This document shows positions 1,206 through 40,584 of a stretch of DNA of 40,974 nucleotides, piece by piece. Source of the stretch: SAR86 cluster bacterium AG-447-A08 (GTDB taxonomy: Bacteria; Pseudomonadota; Gammaproteobacteria; Magnimaribacterales; Magnimaribacteraceae); NCBI GenBank assembly GCA_003212335.1, contig QCQA01000011.1, forward strand, positions 1 through 40,974. The letters are read 5' to 3'. The position numbers and the translations under genes were made by a program. The first letter of the stretch is position 1; every line of letters begins with the position of its first letter. Under the pieces are notes generated by a model that was not told the origin of the DNA, ran no database searches, and worked only from the letters and a program-made list of their open reading frames with translations.

Positions 1206-2758
<1,553 letters not shown>

Positions 2759-3046
2759 AAATAAAATCGTTTTTTTGTAGGCGTTCACACGAATTACTTA
2801 TTTATCTCTATCTTAAATTAGATAAGAGATGAGTTTTTTAACATTTTTATAAGTTCAATCAAGTCATATCAAAAACATTTATGTTTTAGATATGCAAATT
2901 AACTATTCATACAAGGTTTTATTATTCTTTTAATCCGAAACCTTATATGAATAACTGCAAAGTAATTTGGCGTTTTTGTGTTTTTTTAAAACACATATAG
3001 TAGATAGAAATGCTTGAAAATATCATTAAGTTAATTGATGTAATAT
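2759..3046 (+). other. 16S-23S spacer without tRNA genes
   Basis: This spacer of about 288 nt is very AT-rich and contains no tRNA: there is no T-loop GTTCRANYC, no acceptor pairing and no CCA end. Two clear hairpins are seen. One is 2865-2878 with 2881-2894 (14 bp, one mismatch, 2-base loop); the other is 2905-2919 with 2938-2952 (15 bp, one mismatch, 18-base loop). A 9-bp match between 2962-2970 and 5972-5980 may extend the 23S processing structure outward. Most gammaproteobacterial spacers carry Ile/Ala or Glu tRNAs. Confidence 0.85.
2781..2804 (+). other. Right arm of the pre-16S processing stem
   Basis: Bases 2786-2803 are the exact reverse complement of 1086-1103, with wobble-extended pairing through 2781. 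It begins 22 bases after the mature 16S end, the usual place for the RNase III stem. Confidence 0.85.

Positions 3047-3053
<7 letters not shown>
3035..3053 (+). other. Left arm of the pre-23S processing stem
   Basis: TTGATGTAATATGGTCAAG pairs with 5937-5955 over 19 positions with one G-U wobble. The inner part is the mature 5'/3' end helix of 23S rRNA and the outer part is the RNase III site region. Confidence 0.8.
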
Positions 3054-5936
<2,883 letters not shown>

Positions 5937-5945
<9 letters not shown>

Positions 5946-5955
5946 ATTACATCAA
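5937..5955 (+). other. Right arm of the pre-23S processing stem
   Basis: CTTGACCGTATTACATCAA is the partner of 3035-3053 and spans the mature 3' end of 23S. Confidence 0.8.
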
Positions 5956-6005
5956 GTAATTTCTTGATATACCAAATTACATTAATGATTGAATTTATAA
6001 GTTTT

Positions 6006-6123
6006 TGTCTGATGACCATAGCGAGAGTGAACCACCTGATACCTTTTCGAACTCAGAAGTGAAACCTCTTAGCGCCGATGGTAGTGTGGTTGCGACCATG
6101 TGAGAGTAGGACATCGTCAGACT
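6006..6123 (+). rRNA. rrf: 5S ribosomal RNA
   Basis: About 118 nt. The 5' end TGTCTGAT pairs with the 3' end ATCGTCAGAC (helix I). The internal CGAACTCAGAAGTGAAAC and GCGCCGATGGTAGTGTGG are the classical bacterial 5S motifs. It lies 60 bases after 23S and is directly followed by the operon terminator, with no distal tRNA. Confidence 0.96.
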
Positions 6124-29500: not shown

Positions 29501-30865
29501 TTAAAATCTGTCTGTTTCAGGTTCAATCTCTTTCAGGTTCAAGTAAAAAATTTCTTTGATCTTTGCTAATTCTTCTTCAGTTTCAGCTTCAAATCTTAAA
29601 ACTAAAAATGGAGAGGTATTAGAAGCTCTTAACAGCCCCCATCCTTTCTTAAATTCAACTCTTATACCATCAATATCAATCATATTGGCATTCTCAAAAT
29701 TAGAGTGTTTTATAAATTGATCTACGATTTGGAATTTTCGATCATCTGTAGCTTTAATGTTTATTTCTGGGGTTGAAACCAAATTAGGAACACTTTCAAA
29801 AACATTTTTGTCATCTGAGTTTGCAATAATCTCTAGCATTCTTGCTCCTGCATATATTCCATCATCAAAACCTGGCCATCTATCATTAAAAAATATATGA
29901 CCGCTCATTTCACCGCCAAGATGGGCTGACGTTTCTCTTATTTTTTGCTTGATGAAAGTATGTCCTGTTTTGCATATCAATGGATTTCCTTTTAAACGAG
30001 ATATTTCATCAGATAATAATTGTGAGCATTTCACATCAAAAACCACTGAAGCACCTGGGTTACTTTCTAGTACTTGCCTAGAGAATAAGATCATTTGCCT
30101 ATCAGGATAAATCATCTCTCCTGAAGGTGAAATTACACCCAATCTGTCAGCATCACCATCGAAAGCTAGGCCAACTGTTGAATTATTTTTTGCAACACTA
30201 TCAATAAGGTCAAGCATATTTTCTTTTTTAGATGGATCAGGATGATGATTAGGAAATAAACCATCAGGATTTCCATAAAGTTCTATAACATTGCAACCTA
30301 ATTTTTCATAGACTTCCTTTGCAACTACTCCAGCTGCTCCGTTTCCACAATCAATTGATATATCAAGAGCCTTATTGAGTTGAACACTCTTTACTATTCT
30401 ATTTATGTAACTCTCTTTAATATCAACTTTGTCTAACTTGCCCTGACCAAGCTGAAAATCTTTATTTATGATTCTTTCTCTAAGAAGCAAAATTTCATCA
30501 CTTGAAGTCGACTGGTTTTTAAAAACAATCTTAAAGCCATTATATTCTGCTGGATTATGACTACCTGTTATTACCACCCCGCTTGAAGCTGCGAGTTCAA
30601 AAGTAGAATGGTAAAACATAGGGCTTGTTACTATCCCAATATCAATAACATTACATCCCGTAGATAAAATACCAGAAGAAAGCCATTCCATTATTTCTGG
30701 GCTTGAAACTCTAGCATCTCTGCCGATGATTAAATCTTTTATGTCTCGGGAAAGTGCTTCCGATCCAAGCGATCTTCCAAGCAAAGAAACTACTTGTTCG
30801 TTAAGATCCTCATATGCTATTCCTCTTATATCATTAGCTCTAAATATGTGCTCATTAAGCTTCAT
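29501..30865 (-). CDS. algC: Phosphomannomutase/phosphoglucomutase
   Basis: Interconverts hexose 6- and 1-phosphates and provides precursors for LPS and other polysaccharides. 454 residues from the ATG at 30865 (MKLNEHIFRANDIRG), which matches the family N-terminus; a GTG at 30886 would add seven residues. The catalytic phosphoserine loop is TGSHNPAEYNG, the metal loop is AFDGDADRLGV, the sugar-specificity loop is GGEMSGHIFF, and the C-terminal phosphate-binding region is RASNTSPFLVLRFEA. It is the first gene of algC-argB-slmA and divergent from ilvE. Confidence 0.94.
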   Translation of the reverse strand: MKLNEHIFRANDIRGIAYEDLNEQVVSLLGRSLGSEALSRDIKDLIIGRDARVSSPEIMEWLSSGILSTGCNVIDIGIVTSPMFYHSTFELAASSGVVITGSHNPAEYNGFKIVFKNQSTSSDEILLLRERIINKDFQLGQGKLDKVDIKESYINRIVKSVQLNKALDISIDCGNGAAGVVAKEVYEKLGCNVIELYGNPDGLFPNHHPDPSKKENMLDLIDSVAKNNSTVGLAFDGDADRLGVISPSGEMIYPDRQMILFSRQVLESNPGASVVFDVKCSQLLSDEISRLKGNPLICKTGHTFIKQKIRETSAHLGGEMSGHIFFNDRWPGFDDGIYAGARMLEIIANSDDKNVFESVPNLVSTPEINIKATDDRKFQIVDQFIKHSNFENANMIDIDGIRVEFKKGWGLLRASNTSPFLVLRFEAETEEELAKIKEIFYLNLKEIEPETDRF

Positions 30866-30953
30866 GCACGGATTATATCTGTTCACTAATATATTTGGTC
30901 TATATAAAATTATTTATATCGATAGAATATAGAGTCAAAAAAGGGGATTAGCT

Positions 30954-31874
30954 TTGGATCTTTCTAAAATAAACGGAGAAATATGGTTTGATGGCCAAAT
31001 GATTGACTGGCAGGATGCCAATACTCACTTATTGACTCATACTCTTCATTATGGACTGGGTGTTTTTGAAGGTGTTAGAGCCTATAAAACAAATAAAGGT
31101 CCATCAATCTTTAGACTTCATGATCATACTGACAGGCTTTACAAATCAGCTTCTACAGTCAATATTGAAATACCCTATTCCAAAGATATTATCAATGAAG
31201 CTCATCAAGATGTTATTAGGTCTAACAATCTTGAAGAGGCCTATATCAGACCAATGTGCTTTTATGGCTCAGAAGGGATGGGACTGCGAGCTGATAATTT
31301 AAAAGTACATACTATGGTTGCTGCTTGGGAGTGGCCTTCCTATATGGAGCCCGAGGCAAGAGAGAAAGGCATTAAAGTAAAGCTTTCATCATATACCAGG
31401 CAAGTTAGAAACCCAGTTTCAAACTCTAAGGTTAATGGAAACTATGTGCATTCAATTGTTGCTTTAAATGAAGCTCTTGAGAGTGGATTTGATGAAGCCT
31501 TAATGTTAGATGCAGAAGGTTACGTAGCGGAAGGCAGTGGAGAGAACTTTTTTATAGTTAAAGAAGGGACGCTTTACTCACCGGACCTTGATTCCTGTTT
31601 AGATGGCATAACAAGAAGAACAATTATAGATTTAGCTTCCGAACTTGATATTCCCTTTGAAATTAAGAAACTTAAAGTGGAGGATGTCCTAAGAGCGGAT
31701 GAATCGTTCTTTTCAGGTACAGCAGCGGAAGTTGTACCAATAAACTCTCTCGATGATAAACCCATAGGATCTGGTTTGAGAGGACCCATAACAGAGAAAT
31801 TACAAAGTGCATACTTTGACCAAGTTAGAGGAGTTAGAGAAAAAAACTCTTCTTGGCATACCTACGTCAAATAG
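30954..31874 (+). CDS. ilvE: Branched-chain amino acid aminotransferase
   Basis: Final step of leucine, isoleucine and valine synthesis; a PLP fold type IV enzyme. 306 residues. The start is TTG at 30954 with a strong AAGGGG at 30941-30946, and no better ATG exists. Family blocks are LHYGLGVFEGVRAY, YIRPMCFYG, the PLP lysine near residue 159 in SKVNGNYVHS, EGYVAEGSGENFF and ELDIPFE/FFSGTAAEVVPI. It is the first gene of the rightward run into the LPS core genes, with waaF starting 6 bases after its stop, as in pseudomonads. Confidence 0.97.
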   Translation: MDLSKINGEIWFDGQMIDWQDANTHLLTHTLHYGLGVFEGVRAYKTNKGPSIFRLHDHTDRLYKSASTVNIEIPYSKDIINEAHQDVIRSNNLEEAYIRPMCFYGSEGMGLRADNLKVHTMVAAWEWPSYMEPEAREKGIKVKLSSYTRQVRNPVSNSKVNGNYVHSIVALNEALESGFDEALMLDAEGYVAEGSGENFFIVKEGTLYSPDLDSCLDGITRRTIIDLASELDIPFEIKKLKVEDVLRADESFFSGTAAEVVPINSLDDKPIGSGLRGPITEKLQSAYFDQVRGVREKNSSWHTYVK

Positions 31875-31879
31875 ATCCC

Positions 31880-32893
31880 ATGAAAATTTTAATAATTGGA
31901 CCATCTTGGGTTGGAGATTCTGTCATGGCTCAAACTCTTTATAAAAGACTGAAAGAAGAATCTTCAGACTGCAAGATTGATGTCATATCTCCAGAGTGGT
32001 CTTCAGAGCTTATGAAAAGAATGCCCGAGGTCTCCAAAACAATTAAATCTCCGTACTTACATGGAGACCTTAAATTTTTTTCTAGACGTCACTTTGGCAA
32101 AAATTTAAGGAAATATAACTATGATCAGGCAATAATTTTGACTAATTCCTTGAAATCCTCACTGATACCTTTCTTTGCAAGAATACCCATTCGAACTGGC
32201 TGGTTAGGAGAAATGAGGTATGGGCTATTGAATGATATAAGATACCTTGATAAGAATAAGAATCATTTGATGGTTGAAAAATTTGCAGCTCTTTCAATGC
32301 AAGACAGTAATTATTGTCTTGAAAGCTTATCTTTTCCGAAACTAAGCATTGATTATGACAATCAACAATCTTCCTTGGTTAAATTTGGTATTAATCAAGA
32401 TTTACCCTGTTTAGGTATTTGTCCTGGAGCGGAGTTTGGACCTGCGAAGAAATGGCCTGAAGATAATTATTCTATAGTTGCAAAAAATTATCTAAAAAAA
32501 GGTTGGAATGTTTTATGTTTCGGGTCTGCAAATGATCATGAAACTGGAAAGAAAATTTCTAATTTTGATAACTTACTAGAAGAAGATCATTTCTATAATT
32601 TAATTGGCAAGACCTCTTTAGTTGATGTTGTAGATCTCTTATCTTACTGCAAGAAGGTTGTATCAAATGACTCAGGTCTGATGCATATAGCTGCAGCAGT
32701 TGAAACTCCTCTAGTAGCGGTTTATGGTCCTTCCTCTCCCGAATATACTCCACCTTTAATTAATCAAAAGGTAATCATTAGAAAAATGGAAGGTTATAAA
32801 AAAATAAGAGAAGGTAATTTACCTGACGGCTACGATGCTTCACTTTTGTCTATTAGCCCTGAAGAAGTGATGGAAGCCCTTGAGACATTGTAA
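31880..32893 (+). CDS. waaF: ADP-heptose:LPS heptosyltransferase II
   Basis: A GT9 enzyme that adds the second heptose to the LPS inner core at the inner membrane. 337 residues from the ATG at 31880, giving the family start MKILIIGPSWVGDSVMAQ; a longer frame from 31853 overlaps ilvE. The C-terminal half shows PGAEFGPAKKWP (heptosyltransferase II signature) and SNDSGLMHIAAAVETPLVAVYGPSSP. waaC, normally next, is not present before waaG. Confidence 0.94.
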   Translation: MKILIIGPSWVGDSVMAQTLYKRLKEESSDCKIDVISPEWSSELMKRMPEVSKTIKSPYLHGDLKFFSRRHFGKNLRKYNYDQAIILTNSLKSSLIPFFARIPIRTGWLGEMRYGLLNDIRYLDKNKNHLMVEKFAALSMQDSNYCLESLSFPKLSIDYDNQQSSLVKFGINQDLPCLGICPGAEFGPAKKWPEDNYSIVAKNYLKKGWNVLCFGSANDHETGKKISNFDNLLEEDHFYNLIGKTSLVDVVDLLSYCKKVVSNDSGLMHIAAAVETPLVAVYGPSSPEYTPPLINQKVIIRKMEGYKKIREGNLPDGYDASLLSISPEEVMEALETL

Positions 32894-32901
32894 TAGAGCG
32901 T

Positions 32902-34002
32902 GTGAAAAAGAAATTAGCCTTATTATTATTTAAATATTTTCCATATGGAGGACTACAAAAAGACTTTCTTGGAGTTGCAAATGAGTTAATTTTGAGAGGA
33001 CATGTACTGAAAGCTTTTACTCGCAGTTGGGAAGGTCCAATACCGGAAGGTTTAGATGTCGTTGTTCTTGGAGAAAGAGGAAAGTTTAATTATGCAAAGA
33101 ATAGGAATTTTGTGAAAGATGTTTATCTTTCTATGCAAGACTTTTCTCCTGATATTATTTTTGGATTCAATAAAATGCCTGGCCTAGATTTGTACTTTGC
33201 TGCAGATACTTGCTTTGCTAAGCAAGCTCTAAAAAAAAATATAGTTCAAAAATTTACAAGAAGATATAGGCAATCTATGCAGTTTGAAGAAGATGTATTT
33301 TCCCAAAAATCTAATACCAAGATACTTTCTCTTAATGATAAGCAGTCAAATGAATTCAGAGAATTTTACTCTACTCAAGCTGAGAGAATAATCATCGCTC
33401 CACCCGGTATTGATAAGGATTGGTCCGATCATGAACCAGTGAATATTTATGAAGCTTTAAATATTTCACTTGGTGAAAAGATATTGCTTTTTGTTGGTTC
33501 AGATTTTTCACGAAAAGGGTTAGATCGTGCAATACTTGGATTGCGTCACCTTAATGAAAAGAACATATGCTCTAATTTGGTAGTGATAGGCGACGATAAG
33601 TCAAAACCCTATGAAAATCTTCTTACCGATGCTTCTCTGTCTAAGAAGGTCCATTTTTTAGGTCCAAGAAAAGATGTTGCATCATTTATGAAGTCTGCAG
33701 ATTTACTAATACACCCAGCTAGAGAAGAGGCTGCTGGGAATATAATAATTGAAGCTTTGGTATCAGGTTTGCCTTCTTTAGTAACTAGCGAAGTTGGATT
33801 CTCTAGTGAGGTTCTAAAATTTAGATCCGGAACTGTACTGGAAGGAGAATTTAACCAAAACAGATTTAATTTACTTTTAGAAGAGAGTGTTTCAGATAAA
33901 AATTTATTTGACATTAGAAGCTCGATTAGCAACTTGTCTGATAACAAATACTTTTTTTCTAGGTTTAAATTTATTGCTGATTTCATAGAAGAAACTTTCT
34001 AA
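32902..34002 (+). CDS. waaG: LPS core glucosyltransferase (GT4)
   Basis: Adds the first outer-core hexose to heptose II. 366 residues, starting with GTG at 32902. The WaaG N-terminus KKLALLLFKYFPYGGLQKDFLGVA is followed by FGFNKMPGLDLYFAADTCF, APPGIDK, FVGSDFSRKGLDRAI and the GT4 glutamate region HPAREEAAGNIIIEAL. These blocks match WaaG of E. coli and Pseudomonas. It begins 8 bases after waaF and its stop overlaps the next start by one base (TAATG). Confidence 0.93.
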   Translation: MKKKLALLLFKYFPYGGLQKDFLGVANELILRGHVLKAFTRSWEGPIPEGLDVVVLGERGKFNYAKNRNFVKDVYLSMQDFSPDIIFGFNKMPGLDLYFAADTCFAKQALKKNIVQKFTRRYRQSMQFEEDVFSQKSNTKILSLNDKQSNEFREFYSTQAERIIIAPPGIDKDWSDHEPVNIYEALNISLGEKILLFVGSDFSRKGLDRAILGLRHLNEKNICSNLVVIGDDKSKPYENLLTDASLSKKVHFLGPRKDVASFMKSADLLIHPAREEAAGNIIIEALVSGLPSLVTSEVGFSSEVLKFRSGTVLEGEFNQNRFNLLLEESVSDKNLFDIRSSISNLSDNKYFFSRFKFIADFIEETF

Positions 34003-35510
34003 TGAGTAACGTTAAAATTTTAGATAAGCATTTAGAGCATTTCTTTCATAATAAAGATACTTTCACAGTTGCAAAAAACTTTGAAGGAGAAATTTATAGA
34101 AAATATGAAAATAGAATCACAAAGAAATTTGTGAATGAGGGCAGAAGCTATTTCATAAAATTTCATGGAGGTGTAGGCTGGAAAGAGATTTTAAAAAATA
34201 TTCTACAATTAAAAATTCCTGTAGTTGGTGCCCGAAGAGAATACGAGGCTTTAAATCATTTGTATGAATGTGGCATTAATTGCCCTCAAGTTAAAGGTTT
34301 TGCTACTCGCGGATTCAATCCTGCAAACTCTTCTTCTTTTCTTATTACCGAAGAGTTGTATGAAACCATATCTTTAGAAGACTTTTTTTTAGAGGGCTTG
34401 CATAAGAAACTTACTTTTAATCAGAAAAATAAACTCTTGAAAGCGGCTGCTTCTATCATCAGAGAAATGCATCTTAGCGGGTTAAATCATAGAGATTTAT
34501 ATCTTTGTCATCTGCACATAAATAAGGAAATTGATTTTAACAATATACAAATCTATCTTATTGATTTGCACAGAGCTCAAATAAGATCAAAAGTTCCGCA
34601 TAGATGGATTGTCAAAGATTTGGGAGGTTTCATACATTCTATTTTGCAGTTTGATCTCTCAGAAAGAGATTTCTATAGATTTATGATGACCTATTATGAT
34701 TGTACGTTTAGAGAATTTACTTCAAATTATTCAGTTACTACCAAAGCCATTTTAAGTAGGGCTTTTTCTATGTATTTAAAGCCTCACCTCAAAATATTTA
34801 TAAAAAACTCATCATTAACTTCTGAAGACGGTATTTTTGCAAAACACATAAGTAAATCTTCAAGATACCTTGCAAGAAAAGACGTAGATACAAAACATTT
34901 CCTAAATCTCTTTAGAGATGAAGATTTACTCATTAAGAGCGGAGAAATAATAAAAAATGAAAAGGGTCACTTAATTACCAAAACTAATATTCAAGGTAAA
35001 AACTTCTACATAAAAAAATATAGAATTAAGGGCCCCTTGCACTTCTTTTCAAGGTTGTTCAAGAAAACCAGAGCTCATAACTCTTTTTTATCAACGTATT
35101 GGTTGAATGCCATTGGCATCAGGACAGCGAAACCTGTTCTTTTGTATGAAGGATCAGGCATTTTAGGCGCTAGAGATTCATTTTTTGTCACAGAAGAAGT
35201 TTGCGGTCAGAGACTTGATGATGCAATAGGAGAAGACCTTGATCAATTGAGATTAATTGGTCATATAGTGTCCTTCTTTAAAAGAATGGAGTGGCTAAAA
35301 TTCATTCACGGAGATGCTAAAAGTTCGAATTTTTTCTTGGACGGAAATGGGCTTGTTGTTTTTGATCTAGATTCTTCCAGAAAGCTACATAGCACTTATT
35401 TTTTTAATAAGTTTATAAAAAAAGATAAAAAGAGAATTTTAAGAAGCTTGAAAGGGCACAGATCTATATATGACCTTTTGTCCAAGAGATTACAAGGAAA
35501 GCAATATTGA
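34002..35510 (+). CDS. waaP: Fused LPS core kinases: WaaP plus a second WaaP/InaA-like kinase
   Basis: 502 residues, about twice the length of WaaP. Residues 1 to about 265 are a full WaaP (heptose I kinase): Lys53 in YFIKFHGGVGWKEI, Glu80, catalytic NHRDLYLCH (Asp165) and metal motif LIDLHRAQ (Asp188). Residues about 305-502 form a second kinase of the same superfamily: FYIKKYRIKG (Lys338 or 339), FFVTEEVCG, catalytic HGDAKSSNF (436-444) and FDLDSS (455-457). In pseudomonads I recall waaP followed by separate kinase genes (wapP, wapQ); here two seem fused. Both sets of catalytic residues are present. There is a one-base overlap with waaG and a four-base overlap with the next gene. Confidence 0.9.
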   Translation: MSNVKILDKHLEHFFHNKDTFTVAKNFEGEIYRKYENRITKKFVNEGRSYFIKFHGGVGWKEILKNILQLKIPVVGARREYEALNHLYECGINCPQVKGFATRGFNPANSSSFLITEELYETISLEDFFLEGLHKKLTFNQKNKLLKAAASIIREMHLSGLNHRDLYLCHLHINKEIDFNNIQIYLIDLHRAQIRSKVPHRWIVKDLGGFIHSILQFDLSERDFYRFMMTYYDCTFREFTSNYSVTTKAILSRAFSMYLKPHLKIFIKNSSLTSEDGIFAKHISKSSRYLARKDVDTKHFLNLFRDEDLLIKSGEIIKNEKGHLITKTNIQGKNFYIKKYRIKGPLHFFSRLFKKTRAHNSFLSTYWLNAIGIRTAKPVLLYEGSGILGARDSFFVTEEVCGQRLDDAIGEDLDQLRLIGHIVSFFKRMEWLKFIHGDAKSSNFFLDGNGLVVFDLDSSRKLHSTYFFNKFIKKDKKRILRSLKGHRSIYDLLSKRLQGKQY

Positions 35511-36745
35511 GAATTGGAATCTTAAGCTATAGAAGTCATCCTTATTCAGGAGGGCAAGGTATTTATATTAAGCACTTGAGTAAAGCTCTAAGTGATCGTG
35601 GCCATCAAGTTTCTGTCTTATCTGGCCCGCCTTATCCCGAGTTAGATGAATCAGTAGAATTAATAAAAATTCCTAGTTTAGGATTATTTGAGACTCAAAA
35701 TAGAATGAGCTCGTTCGGTTTGAATTTATTATTTCGTCCCCTAGATCTTTACGAATGGCTTACTGTAATGACCGGTGGCTTTCCTGAGCCTTATACTTTT
35801 GGAAAGAGAGTACTCAAATATATTAAACATAATAAAAGTGATTTTGAGATTATTTTGGACAACCAATCTTTATCTGGATCTTTATTAAGAATCCAAGAGA
35901 TTCTTCCTTTGGTGGTTACTATCCATCATCCAATTACAAAAGATCATAAACTAGAAATGCAAAATGCTACTAATTGGAAAGAGAAACTATCTTCAAAGCG
36001 ATGGCATAACTTTCTTCCTATGCAGAAAAGAGTTGCTCCAAAGCTAAAAAAAATTATTTGCGTTAGCAAACCTTCAAAAAAAGATGTTGTCGAAGAGTTT
36101 CATGTTGACCCGAATAGAATAGAGGTTATTTTAAATGGTATTGATATAAATACATTTAGTCCGTGTTCTTTTGATAAGAGAGAAGAAAACAAAATCATTA
36201 CAACTGCTAGTGCAGATATACCATTGAAAGGTCTAAAGTATTTAATTAAAGCTTTACCTAAGATATTGCACTCATTTCCTAAAACTACCTTAACCGTGAT
36301 AGGTAAATCTCCCAATAATAGTGAGGTTAGTAAACTCATAGAGGAATTGAATCTAAGCAATGTAATAACTTTTAGATCAGGTATATCTGAGAAAGAGATT
36401 GTTGATTTATACCACTCTTCTGAATTAGCAGTTATACCTTCTCTTTATGAAGGTTTTGGTTTTGGAGCAGGTGAAGCCATGGCCTGCGGAGTTCCCTTAA
36501 TCAGCACTCATTCTGGAGGACTAGAAGAAGTAGTTGGCGATGCTGCCTTAAAAATAATGCCATCATCTGCAGAAGAAATTGAGAAGGCAGTGATAAAATT
36601 ATTCAATAATCCAGAAGATATGAGAAAACTGTCCATAAAAGGAAGGCAAAGAATGGAAGAAATCTTTGACTGGAAAATTGCAGCAAGTTCTTATGAATCT
36701 TCTTTTAAGGCAGTAATAGAATCTTTCATCAATGAATACAATTAA
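35507..36745 (+). CDS. GT4 family glycosyltransferase
   Basis: 412 residues with two Rossmann domains. The acceptor side runs IGILSYRSHPYSGGQGIYIKHL (G-G-Q-G loop), with GFPEPYTFGKRV and TIHHPITKDHKLE. The donor side has NGIDINTFSP, TTASADIPLKGLKYLIKAL and the GT4 motif PSLYEGFGFGAGEAMACGVPLI with the nucleotide-binding glutamates. The start is TTG at 35507 inside the TTGA overlap with the previous gene, preceded by AAGGAAA. As I remember them, the closest look-alikes are actinobacterial GT4 proteins encoded beside the same types of genes as here, not the Pseudomonas core transferases. Donor and acceptor sugars are unknown. Confidence 0.85.
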   Translation: MRIGILSYRSHPYSGGQGIYIKHLSKALSDRGHQVSVLSGPPYPELDESVELIKIPSLGLFETQNRMSSFGLNLLFRPLDLYEWLTVMTGGFPEPYTFGKRVLKYIKHNKSDFEIILDNQSLSGSLLRIQEILPLVVTIHHPITKDHKLEMQNATNWKEKLSSKRWHNFLPMQKRVAPKLKKIICVSKPSKKDVVEEFHVDPNRIEVILNGIDINTFSPCSFDKREENKIITTASADIPLKGLKYLIKALPKILHSFPKTTLTVIGKSPNNSEVSKLIEELNLSNVITFRSGISEKEIVDLYHSSELAVIPSLYEGFGFGAGEAMACGVPLISTHSGGLEEVVGDAALKIMPSSAEEIEKAVIKLFNNPEDMRKLSIKGRQRMEEIFDWKIAASSYESSFKAVIESFINEYN

Positions 36746-37439
36746 ATATAACAACCTTAATCTTAGAGAAGGGCAGCTAATGTTGGATATGGGTTGTGGA
36801 GAAGGAAGGCATTCAATTGGTGCATTGTTGGACACTCCAGCGAGTATAGTGGGTATGGATCTTTCTTTTGAAGATTTAAAAATTGCTCAGTCCAGACTGA
36901 AAGATTTTGATATTTCTGAACTTAGTACATCTTGTACTTTTGGACTTGGTAATATAGATGATATTCCTCTTAAAGATTCTTCTCTTGATGCAGTTATTTG
37001 TAGTGAAGTTCTGGAGCATGTAGATTCACCGAATGAATCAGTAAGAGAGCTTGTAAGAGTTCTAAAGCCGGGAGGAGTCATGGCATTAAGCGTGCCAAGA
37101 TATTTACCTGAGTTGATATGCTGGAAGCTAAGTAAAGAATATTCAAAAACACCAGGCGGACACGTGAGAATATTCAAACATCAGGAACTAAAGAATTTGG
37201 CTGTATCTAATGGTCTTGAATATCAGTCTTTCCATTGGGCTCATGGATTGCATTCCCCATATTGGTGGTTGCAATGTCTTTTTTGGAAAACTAAAGAGGA
37301 TTCTTTTCTAATTAAGCAATACCATAAACTTCTAGTTTGGGATTTAATGAAAAAACCTCTATTTACAAAGATATTAGAATCGATTCTGCAACCTCTTATA
37401 GGAAAAAGCCTGGTAATGTATTTTAGGAAACCGATATAA
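36732..37439 (+). CDS. Class I SAM-dependent methyltransferase
   Basis: 235 residues with a UbiE/Methyltransf_11 core: motif I LDMGCGEGRHSIG (residues 18-30), acidic end of strand 2 in GMDLS, motif for strand 4 AVICSEVLEHVDSP, and post-motif LKPGGVMALSVPRYLPE. The C-terminal half has an aromatic-rich GHVRIFKHQELKNL and WAHGLHSPYWWLQ that may bind a membrane or hydrophobic acceptor. It overlaps the GT4 gene by 14 bases, and its stop abuts the next ATG with no gap, so the three genes form one tightly coupled unit. The substrate is unknown. Confidence 0.85.
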   Translation: MNTIKYNNLNLREGQLMLDMGCGEGRHSIGALLDTPASIVGMDLSFEDLKIAQSRLKDFDISELSTSCTFGLGNIDDIPLKDSSLDAVICSEVLEHVDSPNESVRELVRVLKPGGVMALSVPRYLPELICWKLSKEYSKTPGGHVRIFKHQELKNLAVSNGLEYQSFHWAHGLHSPYWWLQCLFWKTKEDSFLIKQYHKLLVWDLMKKPLFTKILESILQPLIGKSLVMYFRKPI

Positions 37440-38447
37440 ATGGACTACTCTAGTCTTGAGTTTTATAAGAACTCAGTAGATTACATACTAGATGTTCAAA
37501 ACAAAGATGGATCTATTCCTTGGGAAATTGGAAAGAAGCTTGATCCATGGGACCATATAGAAGCTGCCATGGGTTTGGCAATAGCTGGAAAAAAAGATGA
37601 AACAGAAAGAGCCTATAAATGGTTAAGGGATAATCAGCTTACAGATGGTTCTTGGTACTCTGAATATATTAAGTCGGAGCCCACTACTAAAAGAAGAGAA
37701 ACAAATTTCTCTGCTTACATAGCTACCGGACTATGGCATCACTATTTAATCTTTCAAGATGAACAGTTTCTAAATGAAATGCTGCCATCATTATCTAAAG
37801 CAATTGATTTTGTTATCTCCATGCAGACAGAAAATGGAGATATTTACTGGGCTGCAGAGGATGGTAAAGAAATATTAGATGACTCATTAATTACTGGAAG
37901 CAGTTCAATATATAAGAGTTTGGAATGTGCTTCTGCGATTTTTACGCTCTTTGGCAGGTCTATAGACAAAATTCACTTATCTATGAATAGATTAAAAGAA
38001 TCAATAAATAATCATCCTGAGAGATACGATAGGAGTTGGGAAAGTAAGTCCAGATACAGTATGGACTGGTATTATCCAGTTTTATGTGGCGTCTATGATC
38101 AAGATAAAAGTATTCAGCAAATAGAATCGAAATGGTCAGATTTTATCGTTGAAGGAAAGGGTTGTAAGTGCGTAAAAGAAGAACCCTGGGTAACAGTAGC
38201 GGAAAGTTCGGAGTTAGTCCTCGCTCTTGTAAGAATTGGATTGTTAAGTGAAGCTGAGGAGCTTTTAGATTCCTTGCATCAGTGGCGTGATGATGATGAA
38301 CTTTATTGGACTGGGTATGTTTATGCGGATGATAAATTTTGGCCAATTGAAAAGCCAACTTGGACTGCAGGTGCAGTCTTACTTGCTGCTGACGCTGTCT
38401 ATAAGTTTACACCTGGGTCTGAGTTATTCTCTAAAGCGTGGGCGTAA
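37440..38447 (+). CDS. Alpha/alpha-toroid protein of the 'prenyltransferase-like' family
   Basis: 335 residues made of repeated helices with squalene-cyclase/prenyltransferase-type QDGSW elements: VQNKDGSIPW (19-28), DNQLTDGSWY, SMQTENGDIYW, DDELYWTG. Family-specific blocks are KLDPWDHIEAAMGL, TNFSAYIATGLWHHYL, LITGSSSIYKSLECA, SRYSMDWYYPVL, EPWVTVAESSELVLAL and FWPIEKPTWTAGAVLLAADA. There is no signal peptide. The invariant DDTA of class II terpene cyclases is not visible and no prenyltransferase motif is complete, so the common annotation 'prenyltransferase' is unsupported; a carbohydrate-active toroid (hydrolase or epimerase) is equally possible. The ATG follows directly on the methyltransferase stop. 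Confidence 0.8.
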   Translation: MDYSSLEFYKNSVDYILDVQNKDGSIPWEIGKKLDPWDHIEAAMGLAIAGKKDETERAYKWLRDNQLTDGSWYSEYIKSEPTTKRRETNFSAYIATGLWHHYLIFQDEQFLNEMLPSLSKAIDFVISMQTENGDIYWAAEDGKEILDDSLITGSSSIYKSLECASAIFTLFGRSIDKIHLSMNRLKESINNHPERYDRSWESKSRYSMDWYYPVLCGVYDQDKSIQQIESKWSDFIVEGKGCKCVKEEPWVTVAESSELVLALVRIGLLSEAEELLDSLHQWRDDDELYWTGYVYADDKFWPIEKPTWTAGAVLLAADAVYKFTPGSELFSKAWA

Positions 38448-38448
38448 A

Positions 38449-39072
38449 TTATTCCTTAATTTTACTGAGTATTCTCAGAGACTTTATTGCCTCTATTTCT
38501 TGAAATTGACCACTATCAAGGGCCTTCTTATAGATATTAAAAGGGGGCCTACCTCCATCTTTCGGGTCAGGGAAAACATCATGAATTGCTAATAAGCCAC
38601 CTAAAATTAACCTGTTTCCCCATAGTTCATAATCTTTTTGAGCTGCTTCCTCACTGTGCCCACCGTCAATAAAGATAAAACTGAACTCCAATTTAAGGTC
38701 AGCATAAGCTTCTTCTGACGTTGAAACTACTGGTATTACAACTCCCTCTAATTGAGATCGATGAATAGTTGCAAGAAAGTAAGGCAGGGTATCTATTCCT
38801 TTTCCTGTTTTATCAACTAAATCAGGATCAAAATACTCTTCTCCTGGTTGCTGTTCTTCTGACCCTTGGTGATGATCTACAGAATAAAGTTTTTCATGAT
38901 TCTCTTTTACAGCTGAGCCAATATAGACTGCTGATTTTCCACAATAACTTCCAATTTCTAGTGCAGGACCTGCTTCAGTTGCAGTTTTTGAGTGAGTGTA
39001 TAGAGCCTCTCCTTCCGATGGATCAAGAAAGCCTTTCACTTTTTTTATATCAATAGGAAGATTTAATTTCAT
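38449..39072 (-). CDS. MT24-type class I SAM methyltransferase
   Basis: 207 residues. The SAM site is ALEIGSYCGKSAVYIGSAV, then YSVDHHQGSEEQQPGEEYFDP, FSFIFIDGGHSEEAAQKDYELW and LLAIHDVFPDPKDGGRPPFNIYKKAL, the last a metal/substrate region typical of the Methyltransf_24 family. It is convergent with the toroid gene (stops one base apart) and divergent from hldE. As I recall, actinobacterial relatives with the same VDHH-GSEE and HDVFPDP-DGGRPP blocks sit in the same orientation as the toroid gene, so its inverted position here is a local rearrangement. The substrate is unknown. Confidence 0.83.
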   Translation of the reverse strand: MKLNLPIDIKKVKGFLDPSEGEALYTHSKTATEAGPALEIGSYCGKSAVYIGSAVKENHEKLYSVDHHQGSEEQQPGEEYFDPDLVDKTGKGIDTLPYFLATIHRSQLEGVVIPVVSTSEEAYADLKLEFSFIFIDGGHSEEAAQKDYELWGNRLILGGLLAIHDVFPDPKDGGRPPFNIYKKALDSGQFQEIEAIKSLRILSKIKE

Positions 39073-39171: not shown

Positions 39172-40584
39172 ATGGACCTTAAGATATTAAATAAAGGACA
39201 TGTCCTAGTTTTTGGAGATATCATTTTAGATAGATATATTTCTGGAAGTGTCGACAGAGTTTCTCCCGAAGCACCTGTGCCTGTTCTCAAACCATCTAGT
39301 GAAGAGATCAGATTAGGCGGGGCAGCAAATGTTGCTCTAAATTTATCTAGTCTCGGTTCTAATGCAACAATAATTGGAGTAATTGGAAAAGATGCTTCTT
39401 CGACTCAGGTTATTGACCTATTGCAGAAAAACAATATTAAAAAAGCTTTAAGCAAATCTGATCATCCTACTATCTCAAAGTTAAGAATCCTGGCATCTCA
39501 GCAACAATTAATCAGAATAGATAATGAAGAAGAATTCTCTGAAACAGACCGGCAATCAAGTTTATCTCATTATAAAAAGCACATAAATTTAAAAAAAAAC
39601 AAGGTCCTTATTATCTCTGACTACGGAAAGGGTACCTTAAAGAATATCCCGCTAATCATTAGAGAAGCAAAAAAAACAAAAAAAACAATCTTAGTTGATC
39701 CTAAAGGAGATGATTTCTCGAAATACAAGTCAGCTGACATCATCACTCCAAATCTTCATGAATTTGAAAGAGTAGTCGGAAAGATAAATAACGAATCTGA
39801 AATTACGAAGAAAGGGAAAGAACTTATCAAATCTCTTAGGCTAAATTCACTTCTAATAACCAGAGGCTCAGATGGAATGACACTCTTAGACAAGAGAAAT
39901 GGAAAAATCATTAGAGAGGATTTTCCTACAGAGGCAAGAGATGTATTTGATGTATCCGGAGCCGGCGATACTGTTATTGCTAGTATTGCTGCAGGGCTGG
40001 CAGGAGGATTCACTCTTTCAGAGTCAATTCGATTGGCTAACATTGCTGCCGGAATAGTGGTAGGTAAATCTGGTACAGCTACAGTTACCCAGGCTGAGTT
40101 AGTTCCTTACCTGGGTCTTTCCGAATCTTACGTTACGTCTAATGAAATAAAAGGTTATTCACAAGACCTTCATGAAAGATCCAAAAAAATAGTTTTCACT
40201 AATGGATGTTTTGATATTTTGCATGCTGGGCATGTCGAGTATCTTGCGGCTGCAAAAGAACTTGGAGACAAGCTCATAGTTGCTATAAATACTGATAGAT
40301 CAGTTCGTAAATTAAAAGGCTCTGGTAGACCAATTAATACCCTGGCTCATAGAGCCAAAGTTTTAGCTTCTTTACAATGTGTAGATAAGGTAGTTTTTTT
40401 TGATGAAGAAACTCCAATTAAGCTTATTAAAACTATTAAACCAGACGTGCTTGTAAAGGGAGGAGACTATAAAATTAAAGATATCGTGGGTTATAAAGAG
40501 GTTACCAAGTCAGGAGGTTCTGTAGTCACAATTCCCTTATTTGAAGGCTTATCAACTACAAAGATAATTTCTAAGATACTTTAA
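39172..40584 (+). CDS. hldE: Bifunctional heptose-7-phosphate kinase / heptose-1-phosphate adenylyltransferase
   Basis: Makes ADP-D-glycero-beta-D-manno-heptose, the donor used by the heptosyltransferases of the LPS core. 470 residues, normal. The N-terminal ribokinase-type domain (about 1-315) has FGDIILDRYISG, RLGGAANVALNL and the GAGD motif FDVSGAGDTVIA. The C-terminal nucleotidyltransferase (about 338-470) has FTNGCFDILHAGHVEYL, the RINTL-like RPINTLAHRAKVL and VKGGDY. It is separated from the core transferases by the cassette genes. Its stop overlaps that of the convergent acyltransferase (40581-40584). Confidence 0.97.
   Translation: MDLKILNKGHVLVFGDIILDRYISGSVDRVSPEAPVPVLKPSSEEIRLGGAANVALNLSSLGSNATIIGVIGKDASSTQVIDLLQKNNIKKALSKSDHPTISKLRILASQQQLIRIDNEEEFSETDRQSSLSHYKKHINLKKNKVLIISDYGKGTLKNIPLIIREAKKTKKTILVDPKGDDFSKYKSADIITPNLHEFERVVGKINNESEITKKGKELIKSLRLNSLLITRGSDGMTLLDKRNGKIIREDFPTEARDVFDVSGAGDTVIASIAAGLAGGFTLSESIRLANIAAGIVVGKSGTATVTQAELVPYLGLSESYVTSNEIKGYSQDLHERSKKIVFTNGCFDILHAGHVEYLAAAKELGDKLIVAINTDRSVRKLKGSGRPINTLAHRAKVLASLQCVDKVVFFDEETPIKLIKTIKPDVLVKGGDYKIKDIVGYKEVTKSGGSVVTIPLFEGLSTTKIISKIL

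What the first reader, a model, noticed from the sequence alone, without database searches (positions are those of the whole stretch)
35507..39072. Four-gene GT4 / methyltransferase / alpha-alpha toroid / MT24 cassette inside the LPS core locus
Seen: a GT4 glycosyltransferase, a class I methyltransferase and a toroid protein overlap or abut with no gaps, and a second methyltransferase (MT24 type) lies tail-to-tail one base away. They sit between waaP and hldE, where pseudomonads carry core-specific genes. Each protein has long family-specific blocks beyond generic motifs (WYYPVL/PWVT in the toroid, HDVFPDP-DGG in the MT24). From memory, the same four families occur together in actinobacteria, which lack LPS. 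If so, this is a conserved pathway making a methylated glycan or glycolipid of unknown structure that moved between phyla, not a core-LPS detail. The toroid is usually called prenyltransferase without evidence.
Basis: partly seen in the sequence, partly recalled or inferred. Interest (0 to 1): 0.78.

Follow-up and report, generated by a model that had tools for sequence, protein, structure and literature searches.

The report
Mycobacterial methylmannan gene set in SAR86
Four neighbouring genes in an abundant ocean bacterium match the four-gene set that mycobacteria use to build and recycle a rare methylated sugar chain, and the same set turned up in other bacteria and, lacking one gene, in a salt-loving archaeon.

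Summary
The four genes are real and match the mycobacterial methylmannose polysaccharide (MMP) cluster. Against the PDB the GT4 is closest to ManT (7qsg, E 1e-92), the toroid to the endomannosidase MmpH (7qsj, 3e-86) and the MT24 protein to MeT1 (6g7d, 4e-54). Residues whose replacement cut activity in MmpH and ManT are conserved in every aligned row; the toroid model fits 7qsj at 1.5 A.

The host order is SAR86. The full cassette stands in 80 of 87 other MmpH-bearing genomes; five are cut by contig ends, two lack a nearby MeT1. waaF and WaaP flank it only in the window's family; one genus elsewhere has a divergent GT9 gene there. Two sister families without any heptosyltransferase over cut-off keep it, so it is not a heptose-core detail. 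Among 398 Pseudomonadota, MmpH and strong MeT1 fall in the same five genomes. Kept hits of an all-species scan include other gammas, alphas, deltas and, without MeT1 in view, a haloarchaeon. The published survey covers actinobacteria.

Open: no product is known here, GDP-mannose supply is unproven, no FAS-I marker was found. 'Moved between phyla' is not shown: SAR86 forms one clade.

The parts
35507..36745 (+). ManT: GT4 alpha-(1->4)-mannosyltransferase homologue
   Evidence: PDB 7qsg_A E 1.1e-92, next best 3.5e-20; 7QSG is ManT; G15, H142, K240, E313, E321 equivalents identical in 18 of 18 rows
36732..37439 (+). pMeT3: putative 3-O-methyltransferase homologue (class I, Methyltransf_11)
   Evidence: position between ManT and MmpH as in M. 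hassiacum; 43% identical to the gene in the same place in Nonomuraea; AF2 model pLDDT 93.3, nearest folds RebM, SpnF, TleD and AtmM
37440..38447 (+). MmpH: (alpha/alpha)6-barrel alpha-endomannosidase homologue (the 'toroid')
   Evidence: PDB 7qsj_A E 2.5e-86, next 0.16; D47, D50, E262 equivalents in 14 of 14 rows; AF2 model TM 0.92, rmsd 1.5 A to 7qsj
38449..39072 (-). MeT1: 1-O-methyltransferase homologue (MT24)
   Evidence: only PDB match at E<=0.01 is 6g7d_A, E 4.1e-54 (that 6g7d is MeT1 is recalled); same five genomes as MmpH in 398 Pseudomonadota
29501..30886 (-). phosphomannomutase/phosphoglucomutase-like gene (manB in my scripts), neighbour in most SAR86 loci; possible mannose-1-phosphate supply
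   Evidence: NCBIfam NF046027 PgmG E 1.8e-131, below its cut-off; neighbour in SAR86 loci
30954..31874 (+). ilvE: context; directly upstream of ManT in 53 of 59 scored loci of the sister families
   Evidence: TIGR01122 E 4.7e-118
31853..35510 (+). waaF, GT4 and WaaP-like LPS-core genes: neighbours, not counted as part of the cassette; waaF and WaaP homologues upstream only in the window's family
39172..40584 (+). hldE: neighbour in the window's family, in five f3 loci and in ten non-SAR86 loci; not counted as part of the cassette
   Evidence: NF008454 E 1.2e-176

Best explanation
The cassette is a SAR86 version of the MMP biosynthetic and recycling cluster, and most likely makes a short, free, cytosolic alpha-(1->4)-linked 3-O-methylmannan. 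Inferred cycle, by analogy with M. hassiacum: MmpH cuts a finished chain internally; ManT adds mannose to the fragments; pMeT3 methylates O-3 of the new residues; MeT1 methyl-caps the new reducing end (O-1). Each old chain thus primes new ones. Shown here: homology of three of the four proteins to solved enzymes, conservation of the catalytic residues tested in mycobacteria, the fold of MmpH, conserved gene order, lack of a strongly hydrophobic segment, and persistence without heptosyltransferases. Inferred: the activities, the sugar and donor, the product, and its job. The job is probably lipid- or temperature-related; control of FAS-I is unlikely, as no FAS-I marker was found.
For: PDB sequence matches; residue table; fold; same gene order as M. 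hassiacum MHAS_04402-04405 by locus tags and as Nonomuraea; 80 of 87 SAR86 loci full; the MmpH-positive genomes are exactly the five with strong MeT1 among 398 Pseudomonadota; 73 of 80 kept loci of the all-species scan hold ManT-MeT3-MmpH in order, 61 of these with convergent MeT1; correlated distances of the four proteins, r 0.75-0.92 over 136 loci; highest 19-residue hydropathy 1.0-1.6 in the four proteins (no signal-peptide predictor was run).
Against: No product has been measured. No TIGR01479 (GMP) match in G000 (88% complete), and none over cut-off in 96 of 101 genomes. In six near-complete sister-family genomes no clear mannose-1-phosphate guanylyltransferase was recognised (8 of the 20 candidates scanned). 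The guanine-contact residue D293 of ManT is not conserved. N101 and F102 of MmpH are changed in 6 and 4 of 14 rows. G019 and G025 and several other loci lack MeT1 nearby (in G025 only 1.3 kb was visible). pMeT3 is only putative in mycobacteria too. LPS-type genes flank the cassette in the window's family, in f3 genus g13 and in ten non-SAR86 loci.
Confidence: 0.76

Rival explanations
1. The cassette makes a methylated mannan that decorates LPS (an outer-core or O-chain detail).
For: In the window's family it sits between WaaP and hldE, with waaF and WaaP upstream in 20 of 20 scored loci. In all six f3 genomes of genus g13 a divergent GT9 gene ends about 2.0 kb upstream of MmpH, that is directly before ManT, and hldE is within the locus in five. 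hldE lies beside it in 10 of 77 non-SAR86 loci of the all-species scan; one of these has rml genes and a Kdo transferase nearby.
Against: waaF and WaaP homologues are upstream in 0 of 59 scored loci of the sister families. Families f2 (no PF01075 match) and f4 (one match, below cut-off) keep the cassette. It exists in Nonomuraea and, without MeT1 in view, in a haloarchaeon, groups that lack LPS (established knowledge). A reducing-end methyl cap and a recycling hydrolase without an export signal fit a free chain better than a lipid-anchored one (inference).
Confidence: 0.12
2. Same enzyme set, but a different polymer (another hexose or donor, as methylglucose in MGLP).
For: Canonical GMP missing from many genomes, unconserved D293 of ManT, changed N101/F102 in the most divergent MmpH rows.
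Against: D47, W49, D50, M215, Y219, E262, E265 and W315 are identical in 14 of 14 MmpH rows. The GT4 is far closer to ManT than to any other PDB glycosyltransferase. Eleven genomes of the window's own family carry a TIGR01479 match of at least 200 bits over the guanylyltransferase part (15 of 101 in all).
Confidence: 0.17
3. The toroid is a terpene cyclase or prenyltransferase and the cassette makes a methylated glycosylated isoprenoid.
For: Weak squalene-cyclase profile hits; drimenyl diphosphate synthases appear low in the fold list.
Against: 7qsj leads the fold search by more than 20 orders of magnitude in E-value and the sequence search by about 85. The conserved acidic residues are those of the glycosidase.
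Confidence: 0.01

Closest known systems
MMP gene cluster of nontuberculous mycobacteria (MHAS_04402-04405; Maranha et al. 2023, PMC9883506)
   Same: Order manT, pmeT3, mmpH, meT1 by the M. hassiacum and M. avium locus tags; three proteins match solved enzymes; tested catalytic residues conserved
   Different: Gram-negative gammaproteobacterium, beside LPS genes in this family; no FAS-I marker; GDP-Man enzyme unclear; product unseen. The M. smegmatis tags as printed swap mmpH and meT1. The paper's survey covered actinobacteria
MGLP (6-O-methylglucose lipopolysaccharide) pathway
   Same: Methylated intracellular polysaccharide of mycobacteria (PMC9883506, introduction)
   Different: Glucose-based; MmpH did not cut MGLP (PMC9883506). 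Its enzymes were not searched for here
LPS core biosynthesis locus (waa/hld)
   Same: Physical neighbourhood in the window's family, in f3 genus g13 (GT9, hldE) and in some other gammas (hldE)
   Different: Cassette kept where heptosyltransferases are absent and in organisms without LPS

Membership tests
MMP biosynthetic cluster | Four adjacent genes ManT, pMeT3, MmpH, MeT1 | tested here: met
   published locus tags
MMP biosynthetic cluster | MmpH with catalytic D47, D50 and E262 and the (alpha/alpha)6 barrel | tested here: met
   The paper's text names Glu262, one figure legend prints E256A
MMP biosynthetic cluster | ManT with E313, E321, K240 and H142 | tested here: met
MMP biosynthetic cluster | ManT guanine contact (D293), GDP-mannose donor | tested here: inconclusive
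   E295 in the window; position variable over 18 rows and alignment uncertain there
MMP biosynthetic cluster | MeT1 homologue | tested here: met
MMP biosynthetic cluster | pMeT3 homologue | tested here: inconclusive
   Right place and 43% identical to the Nonomuraea gene; no mycobacterial pMeT3 sequence was at hand
MMP biosynthetic cluster | GDP-mannose supply in the same genome | tested here: inconclusive
   No TIGR01479 in G000; relatives mixed
MMP biosynthetic cluster | Product is alpha-(1->4) 3-O-methylmannan, 1-O-methyl capped | not testable with these tools
   needs chemistry
FAS-I modulating role of MMP (link recalled, not in the text searched) | FAS-I present | tested here: not met
   PF08354 in 0 of 101; control Corynebacterium glutamicum positive; FabF present in G000
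LPS heptose-core gene set | Cassette found only where heptosyltransferases are found | tested here: not met
Prenyltransferase / terpene cyclase | Closest relatives are terpene enzymes | tested here: not met

The most novel reading that the evidence does not exclude
A self-priming cytosolic methylmannan, thought typical of mycobacteria and their kin, is a near-universal trait of SAR86 and widespread in marine proteobacteria, present even in a haloarchaeon. Its ancestral role would then have nothing to do with FAS-I, mycolic envelopes or LPS.
Probability: 0.58. Interest if true: 0.82.

Novelty: new member of a known kind. Interest (0 to 1): 0.7.

Why it matters
MMP has been proposed to sequester fatty-acyl-CoA in mycobacteria, and loss of mmpH slows growth in the cold, but its role is still open (PMC9883506). 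Here the same four genes are as widespread in the SAR86 sample as lipid A synthesis (38 of 39 near-complete genomes for MmpH and for LpxC), in bacteria without a FAS-I marker. That offers cultivable marine hosts (Microbulbifer, Halieaceae and the like) in which to test the role. It would also mean that surface-ocean bacteria may hold a methylated mannan for which I found no report.

Tried and rejected
LPS heptose-core role: rejected as the main reading, although linkage persists in the window's family, in f3 genus g13 and in ten other loci. On checking the g13 linkage I lowered the best explanation from 0.78 to 0.76 and the novel case from 0.60 to 0.58, and raised the LPS rival from 0.10 to 0.12. 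Terpene cyclase or prenyltransferase: rejected. Recent transfer from actinobacteria: not supported by the MmpH tree (quick tree, LG+G4, long branches and odd letter make-up flagged; 76 of its 103 rows come from a scan ranked by similarity to Microbulbifer MmpH). Single-gene trees of 78 loci do not keep every group whole: SAR86 is one clade for ManT, MmpH and MeT1 (support 80 for MeT1) and needs two changes for MeT3; alphas are one clade only for ManT. Phage carriage: no match in the phage collection; none of 25 pattern matches in viral contigs confirmed. Plasmids: one match, the Nonomuraea record of 11.85 Mb filed as a plasmid. GDP-mannose route: left open.

The library lacks most subscription papers, and the 2019 MeT1 paper was not seen. 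That I found no report outside actinobacteria rests on (30 of 50 papers listed; 10 of 55 listed), and on the parts read of PMC9883506; one search was too broad to be of use. In one search only titles and abstract starts were seen.
Full report
WHAT IS THERE. Pfam and NCBIfam give GT4, Methyltransf_11, a toroid with only weak and mixed profile hits, and Methyltransf_24. The window is contig C11 of a 1.54 Mb genome, 88% complete. Two contigs from the same family bear SAR86 titles in the public collection: L181 has the contig length and range of G026 contig 1, and L182 those of G034 contig 4. The host order is therefore SAR86. The 2024 SAR86 paper lists four families (PMC11582366, passages seen), the number of families in the relatives sample.

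WHAT IT IS. phmmer against the PDB gives MmpH of M. hassiacum for the toroid (7qsj, 2.5e-86; next hit 0.16) and 7qsg for the GT4 (1.1e-92; next 3.5e-20); the paper states that 7QSJ and 7QSG are MmpH and ManT. The MT24 protein has one hit, 6g7d (4.1e-54); that 6g7d is MeT1 is recalled, since the entry's title says only methyltransferase. pMeT3 has no close solved relative; its model (pLDDT 93.3) is nearest to RebM, SpnF, TleD and AtmM; one search names the AtmM entry D-glucose O-methyltransferase. The published MMP cluster (PMC9883506; abstract, introduction, discussion and six result sections read, other parts as passages) consists of exactly these: MHAS_04402 ManT, 04403 pMeT3, 04404 MmpH, 04405 MeT1. 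The M. avium tags give the same order; the M. smegmatis tags as printed swap MmpH and MeT1.

RESIDUES AND FOLD. With the paper's numbering, MmpH D47, W49, D50, M215, Y219, E262, E265 and W315 are identical in 14 of 14 rows (window, M. hassiacum, 12 SAR86). T163 is kept in 13, N101 in 8 and F102 in 10 of 14; the N101 and F102 changes are to histidine. The paper's text names Glu262 as the mutated base, while one legend prints E256A. ManT G15, H142, K240, E313, F315 and E321 are identical in 18 of 18; L291, D293 and L317 are not. The AlphaFold model of the window MmpH (pLDDT 90.6) superposes on 7qsj with TM 0.92 and 1.5 A; the next fold stands at 3e-7. None of the four proteins has a strongly hydrophobic segment.

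THE CASSETTE TRAVELS AS A UNIT. MmpH was found in 88 of 101 genomes of the order sample (38 of 39 at least 90% complete), as widely as LpxC (91 of 101, 38 of 39). The loci of all 87 MmpH-positive genomes other than the window's were fetched: 80 have ManT>pMeT3>MmpH>MeT1< in that order and orientation, 5 are cut by contig ends, and 2 of one genus (G019, G025) have no MeT1 nearby. In 398 Pseudomonadota drawn without regard to the cassette, the window's genome among them, the MmpH profile finds 5 genomes. The MeT1 profile finds the same 5 at E below 1e-85 and 8 others at 1e-11 to 1e-33, most of them partial matches. Leaving out the window's genome, the chance that two independent sets of 4 among 397 coincide is about 1e-9 (relatedness ignored). 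The four others carry the complete cassette in the same order.

HOW WIDE. By record title the 80 are mostly gammaproteobacteria (Halieaceae, Microbulbifer, Spongiibacter, Cellvibrio, Endozoicomonas and others), with alphaproteobacteria, deltaproteobacteria, one labelled SAR324, and the haloarchaeon Natrinema gari; three are SAR86 (L181, L182 and L188, the last by its contig length that of G014). Of the 80, 61 have the full canonical cassette and 12 more have ManT-pMeT3-MmpH in order without MeT1 downstream (10 not in the locus, 1 contig short, 1 elsewhere); 4 lack part of the upstream genes on contigs that end within 2.1 kb; 2 Desulfobacterales have MmpH alone; 1 has a short upstream contig and no MeT1. 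Natrinema is among those without MeT1. An actinomycete, Nonomuraea, has the four genes with MeT1 1.2 kb further on.

LPS. In the window's family, waaF and a WaaP-like kinase precede ManT in 20 of 20 loci with enough sequence, and hldE follows MeT1 directly in 19 of 21. In the three other families homologues of this waaF and WaaP precede it in 0 of 59, and ilvE stands next to ManT in 53 of 59. The six exceptions are genus g13 of f3: there a divergent GT9 gene ends about 2.0 kb upstream of MmpH, directly before ManT, and hldE is within the locus in five. PF01075 was found in 41 of 101 genomes, 40 over cut-off: 34 of the window's family, the six g13 genomes, and one f4 genome below cut-off; no f2 genome is among them. 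LpxC is found in most genomes of each family (91 of 101 in all). hldE also lies beside the cassette in 10 of 77 non-SAR86 loci. My reading: the LPS locus is an old home of the cassette in gammas, and the cassette outlived the loss of the heptose genes in much of SAR86. That argues against dependence on a heptose core; it does not exclude every link to LPS.

ORIGIN. In the MmpH tree of 103 rows SAR86 is one clade (100), and alphas and deltas group largely by lineage (quick tree with flagged long branches). Pairwise distances of the four proteins correlate at r 0.75 to 0.92 over 136 loci, and 0.66 to 0.86 over 60 loci outside SAR86. This suggests long joint inheritance; transfers between phyla are possible, above all for Natrinema, but are not demonstrated.

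MECHANISM AND GAPS. By analogy with the mycobacterial model, MmpH cuts finished chains, ManT extends fragments, pMeT3 methylates O-3 and MeT1 caps O-1. In M. smegmatis, loss of mmpH abolished MMP and slowed growth at 15 C (18% longer generation time). The paper says that MMP is proposed to sequester fatty-acyl-CoA; a specific tie to FAS-I is recalled and is not in the text searched. SAR86 has no FAS-I marker (0 of 101) and the window's genome has FabF. The donor is the weak point: a TIGR01479 match over cut-off is in 5 of 101 genomes and none in the window's genome; 15 of 101, 11 of them in the window's family, have a match of at least 200 bits. In six near-complete sister-family genomes PF00483 gave 20 candidates; 8 were scanned, giving MurU-like, GalU-like and CBS-domain proteins, all below the models' cut-offs, 6 more look GalU- or RfbA-like by their first residues, and the other 6 were judged by size or not at all. 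A non-canonical enzyme may make GDP-mannose, or the polymer may differ in some families.

VERDICT. A new member of a known kind, in a place where it was not expected. Searches listed no paper placing it outside actinobacteria, within the held library and the listing limits told under Tried and rejected.

Noticed in passing
window 1206-6122: Complete 16S-23S-5S rRNA operon; ARAGORN found no tRNA in the window, so none in the 16S-23S spacer.
   Followed up: partly
window 34002-35510: The WaaP-like ORF is 502 aa, with an N-terminal RfaP/WaaP match over residues 6-260 and a second kinase-like stretch (two Kdo-family stretches, weak Bud32-type hit in the C-terminal half).
   Followed up: no
SAR86 families f2, f4 and most of f3: Heptosyltransferases (PF01075) not found while LpxC mostly is, pointing to a heptose-free LPS in much of SAR86.
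   Followed up: partly
G042, G045, G051, G081, G084, G093 (f3 genus g13): A divergent GT9 gene directly before ManT, the only heptosyltransferase-type genomes over cut-off outside the window's family.
   Followed up: partly
L192, L196 (Desulfobacterales): MmpH homologues without ManT or pMeT3 within the locus; a possible stand-alone methylmannan-degrading enzyme.
   Followed up: no
L190:4871-8020 (Natrinema gari): ManT-pMeT3-MmpH in a haloarchaeon, no MeT1 within about 7 kb; archaeal membrane lipids lack fatty acids (established knowledge), so a fatty-acyl role is doubtful there.
   Followed up: partly
G019, G025 (SAR86 genus g2): Cassette without MeT1 nearby (7 kb and 1.3 kb visible downstream), a possible natural test of what the 1-O-methyl cap is for.
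   Followed up: no
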